This document shows positions 13,775 through 59,087 of a stretch of DNA of 64,000 nucleotides, one piece after another. Made by a program: the position numbers and the translations under genes. Numbering within the stretch: position 1 is the first letter of the stretch; every line of letters starts with the position of its first letter. Location: positions 279,613 through 343,612 of the forward strand of contig WIDE01000019.1 in assembly GCA_015039315.1 (NCBI GenBank), written 5' to 3'. Source of the DNA: Clavulina sp. PMI_390 (lineage: Eukaryota; Basidiomycota; Agaricomycetes; Cantharellales; Hydnaceae). The notes beneath the pieces were generated by a model. The model saw nothing but the letters and a program-made list of their open reading frames with translations. It was not told the origin of the DNA and searched no databases.

Positions 13775-16700
13775 ATGGCCACCCCTCCGATGGAGGAAGA
13801 AGACTCTAGTGCAACCTCCGCCTCCTCCTTTGCGGGGTCTCCCCAAATGTCTCGCATGATGGCGGACACCACTGGCAACCTTGATCTCAACTCGTACTTC
13901 CTTGCCCTCGCCAACCCCGACATGTCATCCGCCTCTTCGGATTCTCAGTCTCAGGCCAGCCGGGCTACGAGCCCGAGTGACTGGCTGAATAGTCTTTCTG
14001 CGATGGATGCAACGGCTACTGCCAAATGGGCTGTCGATGCAGACTCGCTGCTTACGACTGGCATTGACCCCAATGCGCTCATCCTGGGGTCAGAGCAGCT
14101 CACTTACGATCCTGCCCTGTACCCATTCTCATTCGAGCATGGAATTTCGAACAATGTGGGGATGATGACTATTCCCTCCCATACCCCGTCCCAGCTGCAG
14201 GAGCAACAACAGCAGCAGACCCAATTGCATTATATGCTGCAGGCTATCAGCCAAGCACAGGCGTCGACACCAACTCAACCATCAGTCGCTCAGGTTGATT
14301 CATCATCCTCAACTGGGTCATACACCCCTTCGACATCAACGGCCGTCACGCAGCAAGTCGCGGCCCCTTCTATGACTGCTCAGCTCCCCGCTAGCACTGG
14401 GAATGAAGCAGACGATGTTGCTCGCCGTGTTCGGGAACTTGCTGGTATCACCTACGCCGTGACGCCCGCACAGCAAGCTGAGGCACTCCGATCTCAGCAG
14501 CTGCTCCAGCAACAACAACAACAGCAACAACAGGCATCGCAGGCTCAAACTCAAGCCCAAGCTTTCTCCATCATCCAACAGAATCCTGCGCTCCTCTCAC
14601 AACAACAGCTCTATCCAAACTCCTATCCTCTACCTTCCCAATACCAAACATCATCCCCTGGTCCGAGCTCGTCAGCTTCGAGCCCCTCTGCTGGCGGCAC
14701 GACTCCCCCTATTCTTGATGGTGGTAAAGGTCGAACAAAGACTTCCCATACTACAATCGAGAGGAGATATCGCACGAATTTGAATGAGCGCATTATCGCT
14801 CTTCGTCGTGCGGTTCCTGCACTACGTATTCTTGAGCGCGACAAATTCCCCGATGAGCGAGCCGACGAGAGAGGCTACGTTGACGGTGTGAAGGCCGCCC
14901 GAAAGGCTAGCAAGGGCAGTATTCTTGGCAAGGCCGCAGAGTACATCGGGTATGTTTCAGTCATTTGATCTCGTCCCTAAATAACCCGCATTTCTGATGT
15001 TTCCGTTACGTTTCTGAATCGTAGAGTGCTCAAGCGCCGTGAACTCCGTCTTCGACGAGAGTACGACGGCCTCAAGGCCCTCATTACAGGTCTTGTCGGT
15101 GGACCCGAGCTTTTCGAGCTATGGGAGCGTGAATGGCGCCAGCGTCATCCTGCAGGTGATGACGAAGATCTTGCCGCCGATGATGGGGATGACGAAGATG
15201 GGAGTGAAGATGAAGAGGAGGCCAAGCCTAGGAAGAAGCCGAAGCTCGCCACTGCGCCTCCTCCTGTAGCTGCCCCTGCACCCGCTCCTACGCAGGTGTT
15301 CCAGGCTACTGCTGCTCCATCGCAACCTGAATTGAAGCGCAAACGCGGACGACCACGGAAGAATCCCCTCCCTGGAGCGCCTGCCACCGGTGTTCCGCTG
15401 CCTTTCTTCCCTTCTGCTCAGGTAGAGCAAGAGATTCAGCAGCACCAGCAAGATCAACTACAACCGGGCGGAGCAAAGGTCCTTCTCGGCGTCTTCATGC
15501 TTTTCTCCTTCCTCAACCCTTCAACATCCCCCTCCCTCACCCCCTCCACCACTTCGTCCTCATCATCAACAACACACAAACACGTCGGGACTGTGCTCAG
15601 TGCAATCAACCATACCTTGCACTCGCATCCTGCGACAAAATATGTCGCTACGTCGGCACCACCGCTTTTCGAGAGCCTCTCGTGGGCGACCGTCATTGGC
15701 TATGCTCATGCGCTCGTGACGATCGTTCTGTTCCTTTCCCTGGCGAAGAGCTTTGCAGGCCGCGATGCTTGGTGGGCACGCTGGGTTCCTTCGTTCTACC
15801 CCGTCGCACCAAGTTCAAGCCATACCTCTGCTACGGCGTCAATCGCCAGTTCTAGAGGAGCACGCAAGAATGCTCGTCATACCCGTACACCTACCAGTCC
15901 CGCAACATTGTCCACAGCTGCGGTCGCACACCACAACGCCAACCTCACAGCGATGTTGGAAAGGGATGATCGCGAGCTCTTGGCGCGTGTGCTGAGGGTT
16001 GAGGATGTGGGTATTCTGGGTGCTTTTAGTGCTGTTCTCGGCGCACTTGGCACGTGGGCCAAGATTAGTGTTGGATCTATGATCAGGCTTGGTGGGAACA
16101 GCTCGAGTCAGCGACAACGGGACGCAAGGAGAGCCCCAGTTGTTGCAGCTCAATTCGATACGGCAGAGAGGGCCGCGGTTGTACGATTGGCTGAACTGGA
16201 CTTGATGCATCGACGTGAGTCTTTTGAATAGCAGCTCCTCGCTTTCGCCTGAAACTGACTTGTTCGTGACATTCTAGATGAGTCTCTCTCGTATATCCGG
16301 AGGGTCTACCACACTGCTCGGCTCTACGTCCTCTTGGCCCCTTCCCCTTCCCCATCCGCGTCTACGCCGACTTCCTCCGAACTCGCCACTCTTGCTGTCC
16401 TCGCTTCGCCACTGTCTACCTCCTTGGCCCAGACAGCCTGGTCTCGCGCCCAATTAGTGTCCTCGCACTCGCGTCTCCGCGACCGCAAGGTCCTCTTGGA
16501 CCGCCCTCTTGCCGATGCTCTGGCTCTTTACGAAGCTGGCCACGCTATTGTTGGCGCTGGAGAGGGGTCAGGGGGTGTTGGGAACGGCACGAACGATGGT
16601 CGTATCACACCGTTGGGTCTGATGGCGAGTGCTTTCGTATGTGGCGAGTTGAGGGAGCGCGCAGGCAAAGTGTTTGCTGCAGAGATCCCTCCCACTGCGA

Positions 16701-47881: not shown

Positions 47882-50800
47882 TACCTACAGCAAGGCTGCG
47901 CGCCTACGCGTTCAGCGCCAATCTTCCTCGCAAAATCCCTCATCCGAAGACGAAAGCGAACCAGAGGCACCCGAAGCACAACCCTCTCCCCCCAAGAAAC
48001 CACCTGCACGACGGAGGGAAAGCACAAATGTTCTTACTTCGGCGATTCCATCACGTCGCCGTAGTAGCGAAACTAAGGGCTCTATTACTGATGCCTCTGT
48101 TGGCTCGGCCAAGAAGTTGAAAGAGAAAGCTGCGGCTGCTCCTTCTGCGTCGCATACATCGAGTACAACCAGAGGGAAGTCAATAAAGGCGGTTTCTTCC
48201 CCACAGTTACTGGAAACCACTCCTCCGAATAACAAAAAACGACGTGTCGACTCACTGCCTATCTCCTTAACTCCTTCGTCGCTAGAGACGACCACTCGTC
48301 CGACAAAGCGGGCCAAAATATCACCCCCTAAGTCGAGAGAGAAACAGTCTGGCGATGAATTACCCGATATACCCCGAGATGACATGAATGAAAACTTGGG
48401 GACCATCCCCATAGTCCTCGATCCCCCTAATGCAGTGACAAAGAGAAGTCGGGGTGATGGACATGGCCGACAACACGTCTCTCCAATCGTTCCGTCGAAA
48501 CCTTCTATGCCTTGTGAGTGGGCTCTCATTTGACTATACATGCATACTTGCCGATGCCAATGAAATTGCAGCCCTCAATGTCACTCGTAGCAGTCGTCAA
48601 ACTAAACCAACTCCATCTGCACCCAAAGTTACTCGTCGAGGGAGCGCAAAATCTGCCATTCCGTCCTCTCCACAACTTCAATCCTCATCCCGAACATCAC
48701 CACAACCCCAAATTCCTGACGAATTGCCTACACCACCACTGAGAAATACTCCAAAGGACTTGTCAAGTATATTCGCCGCCCATACCCCAAGTGGTTTGGA
48801 CACTCCTCCCGCTCGTAATCTATCCGCCAATTCCACGCCCCGCCGGTCACGAATGCTTGGAAAAGCTTCCACACTCCCAAACATTCCGAAGTCCCCTTCA
48901 CAAACTGATCTACCCCCTGGATCTCAAAATTCAATTGCGTCTTCTTCACGCTCAGTGCAGCAGACTACATCCTTGCCAGCATTGCCAGCATCTCCCAATA
49001 AGCTAGAAGACGAGTCCGTGACCGATCCAGAGCCTATTCCTTCCCGTCCACCCATGCGAACTTACGGTTCCGTTCGATCGTTCCTAGCTCCAATACCCCC
49101 TCCTGGTGGCGAAGATGGAGACGGCCCAGACGCTGATGAGCTAGAGTCGCAGGAACTTTTTCAACACGAATCGTATGCTGATTTACGGAAGAAATATCGG
49201 ATTGATATGTCTTCGGATGACGACATGGATACTGGAATCACTGGAATCGTTGATTTGAAAACAATTGGCGAGATGAGGGACAAGGGCGAGAATCGACGTT
49301 TCATGGATGATATGGGTTACCTCCTGGAAGGCCTTTCCCCCCAAATGAGTCTCTCTGTAAGAAGACTAAGGTATGGCTCCTGATACTCAATGCACTTTCG
49401 CTGGTAACTAATGGGGTTACTCAAAGCGCGATCAAGCTCGTCAATAACATGGGTGACGTTGAGTACGTGCGTAGAGCACGAGCATGTGATGCTCTCGGCA
49501 CGGCTTGGAGCGCTTTGCAGGACGCCAGCGAAGGGGACAAGGTGCGTTATGCATTGATTCTGTCCACATACAGAGCCGTGTATATATAAAATCTGCGCAT
49601 TCTAGATCATGGGCGTCGCTCAGGCTGCCTTTTGTGTACTTGCAACACAAGATCCAAAGGCATCGGATGAGCTTGCACGGGATTCTACAGTGGGAAAAAC
49701 GCTGTGCCGACTGATATCCACACGGCCGGCAGATGACGTCCTATGCTTTACTCCTGGCCAAGAGCGAGCACTGGACGCTCGACGATTGGGTATCGGCAAG
49801 CCCGAGCGAGCCTTAGTATGCACCGCTTTGTTTTGGCCTTTGGCCTCACAAGCTGACTTCTTTCGTTGGACAGATATCCCAGATAAGACAGGTGCTCAAG
49901 TCAGCCCGTGGGCTTGAAGATGAATCCATTGTGCGTATCAGCTTTAAGCATGGGGTTTTGCTGTATTGCTCTCAACACCAATAAACTTCTTATAGATCAC
50001 CACCCGCCATCTATGTTCTGACTCTCTCCTTACCCTTCGCCGTTACGACCGCGACATCATTCTCACTACTACGGAAGAAATCATTCGTGAATCCAAACTC
50101 ATCTCCCCCCGCATCCAAGCATATCGCAATGGCCTTGCGATTATACCCGACCCGCCATCCTATGATACCCCCAATGTCCAACACATAGATAACTGTCTCC
50201 GGATCCTAGAAGCCTCAATACTTTCCAGTTCCGCCACACATCCCCACGAGACTCTCCTAGAGAAGCAAGGCACCCTCGTTCAATCCCTGTTAACAACATC
50301 CACGGCTTGCGCAATTGCTGATTCTAGTGCACCTGGAGCAAACGTACAAGGTGAGCCTCGTACCTCAACATAGCGCGAACTACACCGTCCCTAACAAGCT
50401 CTCAGCTTCGACGTGTTTACTTAGCGCCCTTCGTCTTCTCGTCAAGCTAGCTGATGCAGACTCCTCATGGCCCGAATTCATCAGCCGGGTGCCATCATCT
50501 CTCTCCCTCCTCGTCAGGCTCGCCTCGTTGTATCACGGTGATTTTGGGGCGTCCGTCCAGTCCCAAAACATCCTGGCAGATGATGATAGCCACGATCAGA
50601 GTGCTACCCGACTCGATGTATTTTGTCTCGTCCTCGCGCTCCTCACTGGCGTACTTGTCGATGACGCGACTTCTCGAGCCAAATTGTTCTCTTTGAGTAA
50701 GTTCATTTCTTAATTAATGTCTGGAACTTCGATTCTCACTGTTCCTCTTAGCCTTATCTTCAAATTGCAAGTTTGGTCATTCATGTACAGCTGATTGTAC

Positions 50801-52172: not shown

Positions 52173-52584
52173 TTATTGTTCTGTACTTTCCTTACCGCAT
52201 CCACACTGTTCCATGCACTTTGAAGCTTTATCATGACATCTTTGCAAACATAATGCGTTGCCTAAATCAAAGGGGGATCCAACTACAGACCGAGGACATT
52301 CAACCTCGCACTGGAAGACGCACTTGAGGGAGCATCCGCTATTGAAGTACGCGTGAGGAACGCTGTAATATACGAATTGCAGTTGACGTCAGAACATACG
52401 TGTCACAAGCTCGCGTCTCGAGACGGTGGCTGTCAACACTACCCAGAACATTGGGTTGTGGGCTATAGCAAACACGGTGGATCAGAACACGCAGGTATAG
52501 CCCTAGCTAAATGGTCTAGACCAACATCGCAAATGCACCAGCGACGCAGGCTAAGAGTGTGGTGATAAAGAAGCTGGAATGCAT
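52173..52584 (-). CDS. Small secreted cysteine-rich protein, array copy 1
   Basis: Three exons (52526-52584, 52400-52462, 52173-52362) give 103 residues; both introns are in phase 2. Exon 1 encodes a signal peptide (MHSSFFITTLLACVAGAFA). Exon 2 (63 nt) has a short propeptide-like segment ending in LETRACDT, which is shared with the other two copies. Exon 3 holds nine of the ten cysteines, in pairs (GCSLKCVFQCEVEC, LCLQRCHDKASKCMEQCGC). It is the most diverged copy: longer loops, and a different last 10 residues. Extracellular location is predicted from the signal peptide. The function is unknown; such proteins in plant- or insect-associated basidiomycetes include effectors and antimicrobial peptides. 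A TATA-like CATAAAG lies about 70 bp upstream. Confidence 0.75.
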
Positions 52585-52710
52585 CGGTGGTGCTTTGTCT
52601 AAGGAAGGTGATTCCAGCGAGGATGGTAGTTTTAGTGACCACTACCTCTCGTGCTTTATGGGCTCCCCTTCGCGTCAATCGCGGGGAATTGGCCCCATCG
52701 AACAGCTAGA

Positions 52711-52735
52711 GACGAGGACTTGACAGATAGGGGCC
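52711..52735 (-). promoter_or_regulatory. Array upstream motif, copy 1
   Basis: Plus-strand gacgaggacttgacagatag followed by ggg, about 127 bp upstream of the start codon of array copy 1. It matches near-identical segments at the same distance from copies 2 and 3, so it is either a conserved promoter element or a remnant of recent duplication. Confidence 0.55.
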
Positions 52736-53188
52736 ACGAAGGCTTTTTCCCTCAGCTCTTCGGTCAGGTTCCATTGCCCATAACCAGACAAACTTCTTTC
52801 TCCCTGCACAGGATGAGGCCCTCCGCGGGCGTCTGTTCCGCCATGATCCCAACGCTCCCGCCGCCTCGCTTACCAAGGGGAAAGCTCGCGTATCGTCTAT
52901 CGACCCCCAAGTGGCACGGCTATGCCCCACGCAATCCGTCGCGCTAAAGAAACCGACCTCAGACCATCGAAGAGAAGCCAGAATAAGAATGAAGGAAGTG
53001 TCAACACATGAACACAGCACATCAAGCGTTATTTCTCACATGCCTGGCCAAACATAACAGATTGCGTCCTCACATCGGTTGCAGCGGTTTAACGATGACG
53101 CACTACACCTTGGCACATAGAGCGATCAATAGACACATCCTAGCCCTGCAACCCCGATGACGCTTGCAGCTGCTCAGAATACGAGCCC

Positions 53189-53274
53189 TCAACTAAGCTC
53201 GAAGCCCTGCTTGAACCATCGCCCGCGCTCTATATTGATGTTGCGTGAGATTTTGCGAGGGCGATCGAAACCTT
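53189..53274 (+). pseudogene. Decayed fragment of the WAPL 3' exon
   Basis: This stretch aligns with WAPL coding near 51068-51161. Shared blocks include aagctcgaagccc, gctcta, gatgttgc/gatcttgc and tttgcga-ggc-atc. Read in the same frame it gives STKLEALLEP, then ALYIDVA, a stop (TGA), DFARAIET, against STKLEALIET, VLYTDLA, GFAKAIQT in WAPL. About 9 nt are missing in the middle, and one in-frame stop is present. It is a non-functional relic lying between array copies 1 and 2, 80 bp beyond the stop of copy 2. Confidence 0.7.
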
Positions 53275-53354
53275 AACCCTCGTATCATTTCATGACCCTA
53301 AATTACATTCGTTGACACCATCGCCTTTTCACCATAACCTCCTTCGCCTCTCCC

Positions 53355-53746
53355 TCAACATCCAACACACTTTCTAACGCATTCCACTCCGAATTCATCG
53401 CATTTCGCCCGACAGGTTGTCGCCTTTACTGGATCGCTGAATCCTGAGCAGCTATAGTTGCATTGGCCCACCTGTTGGCTGCATTTGATCCCGCATTGGC
53501 TATTACATAAGATATAAAGTACATTATTCTCCTTGTGAGCTATAGCTTTGACTTTCGGCAGCACTTACATGTCACAGGCTCGCGTCTCGAGATGATGATC
53601 GTCAGAGCCGTCTAGGACATTGGCATGTGGCCTGTTATAAGTATGCAGTGTCAGCATATGCGATTGTCGCCTGGGATGAAACGGACTGACATAGCAAACG
53701 CATAAGCGATGCATGTCAGGGCAGTGGTGATGGAGAGAAAGCGCAT
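53355..53746 (-). CDS. Small secreted cysteine-rich protein, array copy 2
   Basis: Three exons (53691-53746, 53569-53631, 53355-53499) give 87 residues, with phase-2 introns at the same places as copies 1 and 3. The signal peptide is MRFLSITTALTCIAYAFA. Exon 2 is 63 nt and begins MPHANVLDGSDD, ending LETRACD. The mature part has ten cysteines with spacing 3-3-6-3-11-3-6-3-2, including CSQQVGQC, TTCRAKC and VECVRKCVGC. It is closest to copy 3 (same loop lengths; shared CSQ-VGQC, CRAKC and EFG/VFG-ECV). A TATA-like TATAAAG lies about 53-59 bp before the ATG (53799-53805). The function is unknown. Confidence 0.8.
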
Positions 53747-54857
53747 TGAGAGTGACTTGTGAGGGGACTTAGTCTTTCTGACACCACTTTCCCCTCCACT
53801 TTATAGGCACACTCCTCGGTGATGGAAATAGTCTTCCCCGGGAAATTTATCTGCCGAAAGACATCACTCTAACTTCCTTGACGAGGGCTTGACAGATAAG
53901 AGCCGGCGAATCCCAAGCTTCTTTTGATGATATGTGCTCAACATCTTCGATACTTGGTCACACCTAGAAGCATAAAAAGGTTTCACCTGATCAAACTTAG
54001 ACTACTGGATGTTCCGTGTTGGCCGCTCATGAGACCGACCGCTCGTACGATATGCCTCGAAACCCTACAGTGAGCTTCAGTGACAAGGCGAATAACTATG
54101 CGATGCGTGTCACTAGTTAAGGGATGCAGACTCGCCATTCTACCCCGCTTTGTGTTTCTTGTTATCACACCAGCATCCCGGGGCGGGCTTCAGTAGTGCT
54201 TCGGAGCCTTGGGCGGGAGATCTTTCCTGGGACCTGTTGACATTCAAGATTGGCGGAATATCGCGTCAATAGCCGCTGGCGCCATCGTACAATGGCATGT
54301 GCGACGTCCCTTGGTCTATTGAGGTTCAAATTCCTCTGCCACATGGGACTGATATCGCCGATGACTTCAGGTTATATCGCGCGGCTGCGTATGAACTACC
54401 CCAAGATCATCATGTCACTGACCTTAATCAATCAAGTGTTTGACATTGGGCTGCAAGAAATTGCCAGAGTTTATGGGCTGTTTACTAGCTATGACAATCT
54501 CAGCCAAAAGATTCGAAACTTTCATCCACTTGAAGCACTCTCCCGGGTTATTGGCTATCATCTTTATACTTAACGGGAACATATGACCTCACCCAATATC
54601 TCCAAAATAAACGGGATTTTCCAATACTAATCAGTCCTACATTCACCTGCTCACTAACCCTCTCGTGAGCGTGACCTACGGCAAGATTCTACTCAAATAG
54701 GTGGGGACAGCAATCCAGTGGTTCACCATCCAGCGCTAAATCCAGGCATTGGTGAACTAGGATTTCAGGCGACAAAAACAGTATGATCCCGAGACCCTAG
54801 GTTATTACATTGAGTGATACCAACTTCATTTGAGTCGCACTTTCCTCCATCTCTTCC
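53747..54857. other. Spacer between array copies 2 and 3
   Basis: About 1.1 kb. Copy 2's TATA box and upstream motif are at its left end. A plus-strand open stretch at 54250-54573 has no recognisable family and is not called as a gene. No WAPL-like relic was found here. Confidence 0.5.
53880..53904 (-). promoter_or_regulatory. Array upstream motif, copy 2
   Basis: Plus-strand gacgagggcttgacagataa followed by gagcc, about 134 bp upstream of the copy 2 start. It corresponds to the motif at 52711-52735. Confidence 0.55.
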
Positions 54858-55245
54858 TCAGACGCACTTGGCACAGCCTGCCACACACTCCGTCCCAAAG
54901 ACGCCACACTTCGCCCGGCACTCTGTCGCCTGCACTGGTGTAAGTCCTGAAGAGCAGCTGGCCATGCATTGTCCAACGCGTTGGCTACATGAGCTTTGAC
55001 AATCCCTACTATAGAACATGCAATGTTAAACACCCCAGCTTGCAGGACGTTTCCTAATGGAGACTCACAGGCTGCAGGCTCGTGTTTCGAGAAGAGAATT
55101 GTCAGACCCGCCTAGGGCATTCGCATGTGGCCTAATTGGAATATGAGATTCAAAATAGCCTCGGGACAACCCGAATGAATCAGACTTACAGAGCAAACGC
55201 ATGAGCGAGGCAGACCAAGATCACGGTGATTGAGACGAAGCGCAT
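54858..55245 (-). CDS. Small secreted cysteine-rich protein, array copy 3
   Basis: Three exons (55190-55245, 55069-55131, 54858-55008) give 89 residues; both introns are in phase 2. The signal peptide is MRFVSITVILVCLAHAFA. The 63-nt exon 2 reads LPHANALGGSDNSLLETRAC. The mature region has ten cysteines with spacing 4-3-6-3-11-3-6-3-2 (CQSSCSQRVGQCMASC, TECRAKCGVFGTECVAGCAK). The C-x3-C pairs separated by six residues suggest short disulphide-linked helical hairpins. A TATATTTA-type box lies about 45 bp upstream (55288-55295). The function is not known; secretion and the cysteine framework are the only supported properties. Confidence 0.8.
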
Positions 55246-55898
55246 TGTTGACGGGGGTGATTTCTTGAGGCCCATTCTTCACCGTCATATTTATATGCTC
55301 CCTCCTGGTACACAATTGGAAATCTTGTTCCGGACGAAGCTGACCGCTGAGCGATGTCATGCCGCCTTTTACTCACACCCGGGGACGAAGATTGACAAAT
55401 AGGGGTCAGTGCATCTCAAGCTTCTGACGGTAATATGCATACAGTCAAACCAATCGTGTGTCACATTGGACGGGACATCTCCATGAGCCTTCCTTATGGC
55501 GAAATCTCACCTGACGAAACTTGCATATGCTCAACGTCCATGAGTATATAGTTGTTCTTCATCCTTCTTCCACGTATTTTTCATTCGTTTGAGACTTCTG
55601 AGGCGTGGCCAAAGTCGTCAAGACCCTGGGTCCTAAAATTATGATTGGCTGAGCCCTACGTGTCCCTGGGTTACATCATTCCTTCTCCTCTTGACAACGA
55701 ATGCAGGGGCTCGACACGCAGCGCTGATTGTATTACCCACATCCCAGGCTTCTCCCGGTCATGATGGTATGCTGTTCCATGATTGACAGTGTAGATTACT
55801 TATACACCATCGCGATTTGTTACACAATCTTGGAAATTTTTCACACTATCTGCAGGGCTCCCGCGCTTCTCTGAGACGCACCGGGTATCATAGGAGGT
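55246..55898. other. Upstream region of array copy 3
   Basis: About 650 bp with the TATA-like box and upstream motif of copy 3, then the 3' end region of the MetE-like gene. No ORF of note. Confidence 0.5.
55384..55408 (-). promoter_or_regulatory. Array upstream motif, copy 3
   Basis: Plus-strand gacgaagattgacaaatagg followed by ggtc, about 139 bp upstream of the copy 3 start. It corresponds to the motifs upstream of copies 1 and 2. The following ctcaagcttct is also shared with copy 2 (cccaagcttct). Confidence 0.55.
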
Positions 55899-57363
55899 TC
55901 AAGCCTGCCCTGAGCTCTTGGATGACCAGACTTCGTCTGCTATTTCGCGAATTAGAGCGAGTTTCTTCCATTGGTCTTCCTCCCGGATTGCATTGCCATG
56001 ATATGTCGACTGTAATCCCAGAATTCATCAACAGAAGTAAGCACATGATACGAGAGGTAGTGAGTTGGTTCAGGCGTTACGCTTTCTGGAGCGGACTCAC
56101 CGAGAATCCACATTGGGTACTCAGGGCTAGTTGATTGAGCCCCCCTTTACAGAACTTCGACGCCTCGTTGATGCGGCGAATGATTTGCCCTTTGTCCTCT
56201 AGATCACTGAATTTGGACGACAGCAGACCAAGGACCACCTTGCGCCCTGGAACGAGGAAGCGAAGTGGTTCGAAATTCCCCGCACGATCGGACTCCCATT
56301 CAAGGTACAAGACATCGAGCTTAATGTCCTCAAAGATCGTCTTTGCCACTGGCTCGTAGCCGCCTGTGATATTGTGTCAGTCAACCTAAGCTATAAATCT
56401 CATCCAGTCGTGGAGCTACAGTCGTACCCGAAGCAAAGAATCGAGACCTGAAGTTCCCTCGGCAGAGATGCATGCCGATCACGAGGTCGCTTGGTCGATC
56501 CTGGATGCAGGCGTTGATCAATGCGGCATAGCGATCTGGTAGTGATTCCTGGTACGTCATTAGATGGAACCCTCAGATTATGACGAACGAGCCGAGATAC
56601 TCACAACATCATCCCCTCGTTCCGCGACACTGGCTCGCATTTTGGCGTCGCAGAGATAAGCCAAGTTCGTATCGTCGAGCTGAATGAACCGGCAACCAGC
56701 ATCATAAAGTGATCTAATTTCCGCTCGATAGGCAGCAACAAGATCGGCAAAGAAATCATCCAGCTACTCAGGCAGATGGAATCGATTCATCGTGAGAGGC
56801 TTGAAGTTCACTCAGAAGCAAATCACTCACTTCTGGATAAACCTCTTGCGAAATAGCGGCACGACCTCCTCGGAAATGTGCCATGGTTGGGGACGGTATA
56901 CAAACCTTGGGAACTGCACTCCCAGCACGCGCCTTCAGGAAGAGAAAATCATCCAGCTGTATCGGGCGCACATGGCGAATCTTGCCCGTAATGGTCAGCA
57001 CAGGTGGAGTCCAGTTGGCATCTCCAGTATCGAGGTTGTTATGGCTGACAGTGACCCCTAAAAGGACCGATAAATAAGATTATTTGAATGTTCACCAAAG
57101 TATTTGCCACCTTCGAGCTGCTGAAGGAAGTCGAGGTGGAAATATGCACGCCGAGCTTCCCCATCAGTAACGACCGGCATTCCGACCGCTAGCTGCTTCG
57201 CGACTAGTCCTGCAATCGTGCGATCCTCGACAGCTCTCAGCTCAGCTTTAGATACCTCATGCTTTTCAGCACCGAGTCGGGCACGTAGTAGCTCCTCAGT
57301 GCGAAGGTAGGAACCGGGGTGATCAAAATGCAGGCGGTTAAGAATTGCTGCTTTATCAGACAT
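55899..57363 (-). CDS. MetE-like cobalamin-independent methyltransferase (single C-terminal-type domain)
   Basis: Relative of the C-terminal half of cobalamin-independent methionine synthase, a stand-alone zinc methyltransferase of about 375 residues. The start MSDKAAILNRLHFDHPGSYL (ATG at 57363) carries the typical DHPGSYLR motif, followed by RAVEDRTIAGLVAKQLAVGM and VVTDGEARRAYFHLDFLQQL. Further exons give VCIPSPTMAHFRGG, AGCRFIQLDDTNLAYLCDAK, VIGMHLCRGNFRSRF (His and Cys zinc ligands), LYLEWESDRAGNFEPLRFL (Glu ligand) and GGLNQLALSTQCGFS (second Cys ligand). A last exon (STYHGNAIREEDQWKKLALI) ends at 55899. All four presumed zinc ligands are present, so it should be active. The methyl donor and acceptor are not predictable; full-length Met6-type enzymes are a separate group. 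Confidence 0.88.
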
Positions 57364-57724
57364 AGTAAATCGGTGGAGGGTGGGTGAGCGCGCTCTTGGT
57401 TCTCGAGGCGCAAAGTCTTTATAATAGATGGGCGGCAGTTCCGTTCTCCCAGTAGAATGAGTGACGCTACACTATCGGGAGCTATGAGCACTCCCGAAGT
57501 CACTTGACTGGGGTAAGCAGGCCGAACAGGTTCAATAAGGAAGCCGGCTGAATTATTCTACAAGATGGGAATAAGTGAGGCGCAAGATTTCGCGAGTGGG
57601 TTGTGTTCACGTTGCCGAAATCGACCGGGAAGAAGGCAAAAGACGAGGTGAAGCATTAGAAGGAGACCGGAGTATATGGATACAGTCGGCTGGCGTTGTC
57701 ATGGTGGCCAGGTACGAATGAACT
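57364..57724. other. Intergenic spacer
   Basis: About 360 bp between the MetE-like start and the CIA1 stop, both on the minus strand. It holds the MetE-like promoter. No defined motif was seen. Confidence 0.5.
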
Positions 57725-59087
57725 TCATGTTGGAGATATCTTCCACACCTGGATGACTCCATCGTCTCCTGCGGTGGCAAGTAGATCCTGAAAGCCTTCC
57801 TGAGGGCACCAAGCCACGGCGTTGACATCAGCATCCCCATGGGTGTCGGGAATAGAGGTGATCAAGTCATGGTGGACCATTGGAGGCTCCTCTGGAGCGG
57901 ATTGGTCCTGAGAAGGTCATTCAAGGGTCAGCGGAAGTAGAACTCTCACACTAATCGCTTACCCATATCCTCCAAATCTTCGTCGCTCCATCCCCGCCGA
58001 CGCTGGCGAGCCACCCAACCTCTGAGTCTGAGGGATTTCCTTGTGCGTTGGTCCAGGAGATGCAATAAATTGTGCGCTCATGGGCGTTAGGGATAGTAAG
58101 CTGACATGACCACTGCTCCTTAGTTGCTCCTGGGGGGCCGTGTGCCCGGGGTACTCGCTCCCGCATCCAAATTTTAATACTGAGATCGTCCGAGCATGAT
58201 GCGAGGTATTTCCCGGAAGGAGAAAAAGCCACCGACCAGACCGTCGAGGTATGTCCTGTCAGGGTATCGAACGGAAACCAGTCATCTTCTGGATCATCAA
58301 GATATAACTTGATTGTGTCGTCATAAGAGGCGGAGGCAAGGATCTCAAGAAAGAAAGCAAGGATAGCGGAGGTATTTGTGACCAAAAGTTACGTCAAGTT
58401 TATTGAATGGGCTCACCTCCTCTTTTGGGTGCCAAGCAACACACTTGACATCTTGAGAATGCTCCATCAAGACACTCATGCACTCAAAATCGGCGTCAGG
58501 CTGGACTAATGGACAGGAGAAACTCAACAACCTGTGTGACAGATTTCAAAGTGGTATATTTAGCAAACTCGCCTTCCCAGACCCATACACTCTTATCTCG
58601 ACTACAACTGGCAAGGAGCCCACCATTGTACGAATACGCAACACTCTTGCATTCACTTTCATGACCTTCCAGCGTGCTCGCACATTCCCATTCGCCAGAG
58701 GCGGGGCCTTCGGCTTCGTCATCATTTTGTGCCCTTTCCCAGATCGCAACTGTGGAGTCGAAAGATGCAGTGGCCAGCGACGTCCCAGATGGGGACCAGG
58801 CTATGCCCCGGACAGTCCGCGTATGACCGGTCGGGATTACGGTAGCGAGTTGGAATCTCGCTTCTTCTAACGATCCGTTCAAGGTCGAATAATGATAGAG
58901 TCTAACAGATTTGTCAGACGAACATGACGCAAGAAGAGGTTGAGTCGGATTCCAGGCGACATTCCAGGCCCGATCTTGATGACCTATGACCAGTCCGATC
59001 AGCCATCGGCACACAGGTGAGCATGTTAATGCGAGAACCTTCCAGCTTTGCGACAGATTTCAGAGTCCATGGCCGATCGCTTGACAT
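57725..59087 (-). CDS. CIA1: Cytosolic iron-sulfur assembly WD40 protein CIA1/CIAO1
   Basis: Seven-bladed WD40 targeting subunit that delivers Fe-S clusters to cytosolic and nuclear apoproteins. The start MSSDRPWTLKSVAKLEG (ATG at 59087) is joined to GHQDRAWNVAWNPTQPLLAS by a short intron near 58988-59035. Blades follow: SCSSDKSVRLYHY, GHTRTVRGIAWSPSGTSLAT, LEGHESECKSVAYSYNGGLL, SCSRDKSVWVWE. Next come DVKCVAWHPKEE, LASASYDDTIKLYLDDPEDD, GHTSTVWSVAFSPSGKYLAS and HERTIYCISWTNAQGNPSDS. The last blade is DADVNAVAWCPQEGFQDLLA, then DDGVIQVWKI, with the stop at 57725. The order LASCSRDKSVWVWE followed by LASASYDDTIKLY is distinctive for this family. There are four or five exons. Confidence 0.93.

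What the first reader, a model, noticed from the sequence alone, without database searches (positions are those of the whole stretch)
52173..55245. Tandem array of three ten-cysteine secreted proteins with an identical exon plan
Three minus-strand genes, each invisible as one ORF, resolve into signal-peptide exon, 63-nt exon and cysteine exon. Both introns are in phase 2 in all three genes. Mature parts keep ten cysteines while most other residues differ. This is the pattern of a small, fast-evolving extracellular family (effector, antimicrobial or self-recognition). I do not recognise the family. Secretion and duplication are read from sequence; any biological role is inference.
Basis: partly seen in the sequence, partly recalled or inferred. 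Interest (0 to 1): 0.88.

Follow-up and report, generated by a model that had tools for sequence, protein, structure and literature searches.

The report
Three-gene array of disulfide-rich secreted proteins

Summary
Three minus-strand genes (A 55245-54858, B 53746-53355, C 52584-52173) each splice into a signal-peptide exon, a 63-nt propeptide exon and a cysteine exon. Both introns are in phase 2 in all three; each mature part has ten cysteines.

New here:
(1) All three share an upstream element about 150 bp before the ATG; a genome search at up to one mismatch found it only in this array (B and C copies; A lacks one base).
(2) In A and B the cysteine spacing is mirror-symmetric around one loop (4,4,7,4 | 12 | 4,7,4,3). 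AlphaFold2 gives a helical hairpin for B's third exon (pLDDT 92), so I infer a five-rung disulfide ladder. Gene C breaks the symmetry and folds poorly (67).
(3) No relative was found in Pfam, NCBIfam, PDB sequences or a 5.8-billion-protein collection searched by shared words.

"Fast-evolving" is not shown: synonymous sites are largely saturated and dN < dS. Best reading: a lineage-restricted secreted prepro-protein, probably a defence peptide comparable in layout to mushroom cylindracin; effector is the main rival. The class is ordinary for fungi; the nested twin-CX3C ladder is unusual.

The parts
55384..55404 (-). Gene A shared upstream element (CCCTATTTGTCAATCTTCGTC), core starts 156 bp before the ATG
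   Evidence: one base shorter than in B and C
55190..55245 (-). Gene A exon 1 (56 nt): signal peptide
55069..55131 (-). Gene A exon 2 (63 nt): propeptide ending LETR plus Cys1
54858..55005 (-). Gene A exon 3 (148 nt with stop): Cys2-Cys10; alternative acceptor 3 nt upstream (TAGTAG)
53880..53900 (-). Gene B shared upstream element CTTATCTGTCAAGCCCTCGTC
53691..53746 (-). Gene B exon 1 (56 nt): signal peptide
53569..53631 (-). Gene B exon 2 (63 nt): propeptide ending LETR plus Cys1
53355..53499 (-). Gene B exon 3 (145 nt with stop): Cys2-Cys10, predicted helical hairpin
52711..52731 (-). Gene C shared upstream element CCTATCTGTCAAGTCCTCGTC
52526..52584 (-). Gene C exon 1 (59 nt): signal peptide
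52400..52462 (-). Gene C exon 2 (63 nt): propeptide ending LETR plus Cys1
52173..52338 (-). Gene C exon 3 (166 nt with stop): Cys2-Cys10, altered spacing, charged tail

Best explanation
A tandem array of three paralogous genes for a small secreted, lineage-restricted prepro-protein of an agaricomycete. Steps: (1) the genes are switched on together through a shared upstream element (inferred from conservation); (2) exon 1 gives a signal peptide cut after AFA (sequence motif, not tested); (3) the exon-2 propeptide is removed after LETR, leaving Ala-Cys (inferred); (4) the mature 5-6 kDa part folds as two antiparallel helices joined by one loop. In A and B the mirror-symmetric cysteines pair across the hairpin as five disulfide rungs: C5-C6, C4-C7, C3-C8, C2-C9, C1-C10 (hairpin predicted for B, pairing inferred). 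C is a diverged copy in which the ladder register has slipped. (5) The rigid product acts outside the cell, most likely as a defence peptide against other microbes or grazers, as shown for the similarly laid-out but eight-cysteine mushroom protein cylindracin (inference). My probabilities: genes and secretion 0.9; helical hairpin for A/B 0.75; five-rung pairing 0.55; defence role 0.4.
Confidence: 0.5

Rival explanations
1. The proteins are effectors or elicitors acting on a plant or other host partner of the fungus; the disulfides protect them in the apoplast.
For: Small, secreted, 10 Cys, tandem, no relatives found: the usual profile. RsSCR10 of Rhizoctonia solani (84 aa, 19-aa signal peptide, 10 conserved Cys) triggers plant cell death (PMC8421026, passages and section 27).
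Against: Host lifestyle is not known. No sign of positive selection: dN < dS, synonymous sites largely saturated. The array lies between a WAPL gene and a CIA1-like gene, a housekeeping neighbourhood.
Confidence: 0.25
2. The cysteines are thiolates, not disulfides: a secreted metal-binding (for example Cu(I)) helical bundle.
Confidence: 0.1
3. A protease inhibitor of alpha-hairpinin type, with a reactive loop between the helices.
Against: Loop sequences differ between copies and gene A has no Lys or Arg between Cys5 and Cys6.
Confidence: 0.08
4. A structural or surface-active wall protein (hydrophobin-like or hyphosphere-protein-like) with no interaction role.
For: Several families of fungal small secreted cysteine-rich proteins are surface-active (PMC8596622, passages).
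Against: Cys number and order differ from hydrophobins and HFS proteins; no Pfam match at E<=10; B predicted all-helical.
Confidence: 0.12

Closest known systems
Plant alpha-hairpinins (MBP-1, EcAMP1, nigellin, vicilin leader peptides)
   Same: Cys motif C-x3-C-xn-C-x3-C on two antiparallel helices; A/B carry C-x3-C-x11-C-x3-C around the loop.
   Different: Four Cys there; ten Cys in a nested, longer arrangement here; fungal; no sequence match in PDB at E<=10.
Cylindracin / PRI3 (Cyclocybe)
   Same: Mushroom secreted prepro-protein of about 90 aa, propeptide ending Arg-36 before Ala-37, C-terminal Cys-rich domain (PMC11532979, abstract and passages).
   Different: Eight Cys, Gly-rich and basic; its 3D structure was not known to its authors; sequences not compared here.
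RsSCR10 (Rhizoctonia solani)
   Same: 84 aa, signal peptide 19 aa, ten conserved Cys (PMC8421026).
   Different: A Cys at position 23, where A, B and C have the propeptide (their first Cys after the signal peptide is residue 38 or 39); sequences not compared.
Small Tim (twin CX3C) proteins
   Same: Twin CX3C helical hairpin (recalled); two Tim complexes are among six insignificant Foldseek matches of the low-confidence gene C model.
   Different: Mitochondrial, four Cys (recalled); no Pfam match at E<=10.

Membership tests
alpha-hairpinin | Cys motif XnC1X3C2XnC3X3C4Xn | tested here: met
   Inner four Cys of A and B: C-x3-C-x11-C-x3-C; C: C-x3-C-x15-C-x3-C; definition from PMC7191063 (passages)
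alpha-hairpinin | Four cysteines only | tested here: not met
   Ten Cys in each mature part; four-Cys statement from the start of the PMC11591084 abstract in a search listing
alpha-hairpinin | Helix-loop-helix fold | tested here: inconclusive
alpha-hairpinin | Sequence homology to known members | tested here: inconclusive
   The profile of three matched 5 PDB sequences at E<=10, none an alpha-hairpinin; a three-sequence profile is weak
Cylindracin/PRI3 | Signal peptide, propeptide ending Arg-36 before Ala-37, C-terminal Cys-rich domain | tested here: met
   A and B at the same residues, C shifted by one (PMC11532979); cleavage itself not tested
Cylindracin/PRI3 | Eight Cys at conserved positions | tested here: not met
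   Ten Cys
Cylindracin/PRI3 | Sequence homology | not tested
   No PRI3 sequence was available in the calls made
Small Tim (zf-Tim10_DDP) | Family profile match | tested here: not met
   hmmscan of Pfam, 0 families at E<=10 for all three
CFEM | CFEM profile match | tested here: not met
   0 Pfam families at E<=10; the two CFEM matches in the genome lie on other contigs
Hydrophobin | Eight Cys in C-CC-C-C-CC-C order | tested here: not met
   No CC pair and ten Cys; pattern as given in PMC8596622 (passages)
Hyphosphere proteins (HFS) | Eight Cys C-CXXXC-C-C-C-C-C | tested here: not met
   Ten Cys in a different order
Fungal small secreted cysteine-rich protein (broad class) | 50-300 aa, signal peptide, at least 3% Cys, no transmembrane segment | tested here: met
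   87-95 aa, over 10% Cys, strongly hydrophobic stretch only at the N-terminus; definition in PMC8421026; SignalP not available

The most novel reading that the evidence does not exclude
A new fungal protein architecture: an antiparallel alpha-helical hairpin held mainly by five cross-helix disulfides made of nested twin CX3C motifs, encoded by exons that match prepeptide, propeptide and ladder, in a co-regulated, lineage-restricted array; gene C shows the ladder slipping register while keeping all ten cysteines.
Probability: 0.45. Interest if true: 0.6.

Novelty: new variant of a known kind. Interest (0 to 1): 0.42.

Why it matters
If the five-rung hairpin is real, it is a compact and probably very stable scaffold without a significant match in the structure searches made here, and a case in which conservation of cysteines alone is explained by geometry. 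It would also give a search rule (nested twin CX3C mirrored about a loop) for orphan secreted proteins in other mushrooms that sequence search cannot reach. As a biological role it is one more orphan secreted family, which is common in fungi.

Tried and rejected
Other LETRAC sites in the genome: 8 pattern matches (reversed-pattern control 3), 3 of them in the array; the other 5 show no such cysteine exon within 600 bases (beside one of them, L013, most of that stretch is masked). The weak genome hit on C90 (E 0.04) is a frame with few Cys. In the window the best tblastn hit outside the array has E 0.19; in 196,467 further bases of the contig the best has E 0.013, 31 residues without the cysteine pattern (L037). 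Exon-3 searches of the whole genome gave only the array and the C90 hit, but B's search missed C and C's found only itself, so diverged copies elsewhere are not excluded. Positive selection: not shown. Shared downstream regions: weak (2, 50 and 25 of 200 shuffles reach the score). Viral and prokaryote contigs: 11 and 125 pattern matches, none a relative. Bacterial-type promoter scan: below the shuffle mean, uninformative for a fungus. NCBIfam is a prokaryote library, so its silence says little. Species: the neighbouring CIA1-like segment matches 411 of 533 candidates at E<=0.001 (120 listed); named rows are six fungi that I recall as Agaricomycetes at 59-61% identity and Phenoliferia at 51%; unnamed metagenome rows reach 74-77% over 80-89% of the query and 82% over 59%, so only the class is inferred. 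VIA rows cannot exclude any family.

Full report
What is there. Enumerating two-intron models from each start codon (GT-AG introns of 40-120 nt, products of at least 80 aa with at least 9 Cys) gave 7, 9 and 17 models for A, B and C. Several tie on the simple splice score; the chosen ones share one plan in all three genes: a signal-peptide exon, a 63-nt exon and a cysteine exon, with introns of 58-69 nt in phases 2 and 2. Exon 1 ends next to the likely signal-peptide cleavage point (AFA), exon 2 holds the propeptide to LETR and the first mature cysteine, and exon 3 holds the other nine. Exon 2 can be skipped without loss of frame. Gene A has a TAGTAG acceptor. Mature parts are 52, 51 and 58 aa with ten cysteines each.

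Chance. In 260 kb of the same contig (window plus 20 fetched stretches, about 2.1 kb masked), 5,549 open segments of at least 30 aa were examined. The three cysteine exons are the top three by CxxxC pairs, and the mirrored spacing is found only in A and B. Raw cysteine density alone would not single them out: ten segments, these three included, have 9 or 10 Cys in 48 aa.

Paralogy and regulation. B is 61% and C 35% identical to A. Self-comparison of DNA shows the duplicated blocks. Beyond the coding part, a 20-21 bp element (CYTATYTGTCAA(G)YCYTCGTC) lies 145-156 bp before each ATG; each pairwise upstream match beats all 200 shuffles. A genome search with up to one mismatch finds only the B and C copies; A lacks one base. 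An ATAAA (TATA-like) motif follows at -49 (A), -58 (B; another at -104) and -75 (C), so its position is not fixed. Downstream regions are not clearly conserved. Co-regulation is inferred.

Rate of evolution. In the mature part pS is 0.79, 0.96 and 0.67 (saturated for AB and AC; dS 1.71 for BC) and pN 0.34, 0.55 and 0.48. In the pre-pro part dS is 0.42, 1.0 and 1.15 against dN 0.23, 0.34 and 0.27 (Nei-Gojobori counts, with C aligned by me on the cysteines). The copies are therefore old or have saturated; positive selection is not shown.

Fold. Read outward from the single long gap, A and B have cysteine intervals 4,7,4,4 on one side and 4,7,4,3 on the other. At 100 degrees per residue this is more coherent than 99% of equal-end placements on both sides, although the first side is nearly as coherent at 170 degrees. 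AlphaFold2 was run on exon 3 of B (47 aa, Cys2-Cys10) with the three sequences: pLDDT 92.2, pTM 0.65, helices 2-17 and 23-45; other models 91.0, 89.9, 88.6 and 58.5. Gene C keeps ten cysteines but with outward intervals 4,4,4,4 and 4,7,4,2; its phase is not convincingly helical and its model is weak (67.2).

Verdict. Well-supported gene models without transcript proof; an ordinary class of fungal protein; a new orphan family with an unusual predicted disulfide ladder. Role unresolved: defence peptide 0.4, effector 0.25, structural 0.12, metal binding 0.1, protease inhibitor 0.08.

Noticed in passing
window 48439-49383 (+): WAPL-type (wings apart-like) gene segment to the left of the array: WAPL profile hit just over its cut-off.
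   Followed up: partly
window 57058-59059 (-): Cobalamin-independent methionine synthase-like segment (Meth_synt_2, just under its cut-off) and WD40 segments that match CIA1-type proteins, on the other side of the array.
   Followed up: partly
window 55006-55011 (-): Tandem TAGTAG acceptor in gene A intron 2 (NAGNAG): two products differing by one residue next to Cys2.
   Followed up: partly
exon 2 of the three genes: 55069-55131, 53569-53631, 52400-52462 (-): 63-nt symmetrical phase 2-2 exon: skipping it keeps frame and yields a signal peptide joined to a nine-cysteine core.
   Followed up: partly
window 13775-14968 (+): Open frame with a bHLH-like stretch (HTTIERRYRTNLNERI), resembling SREBP-type regulators from memory; no search made.
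   Followed up: no
L001 (G000:C203), L002 (G000:C134): Two CFEM-domain loci over the family cut-off elsewhere in this genome.
   Followed up: no
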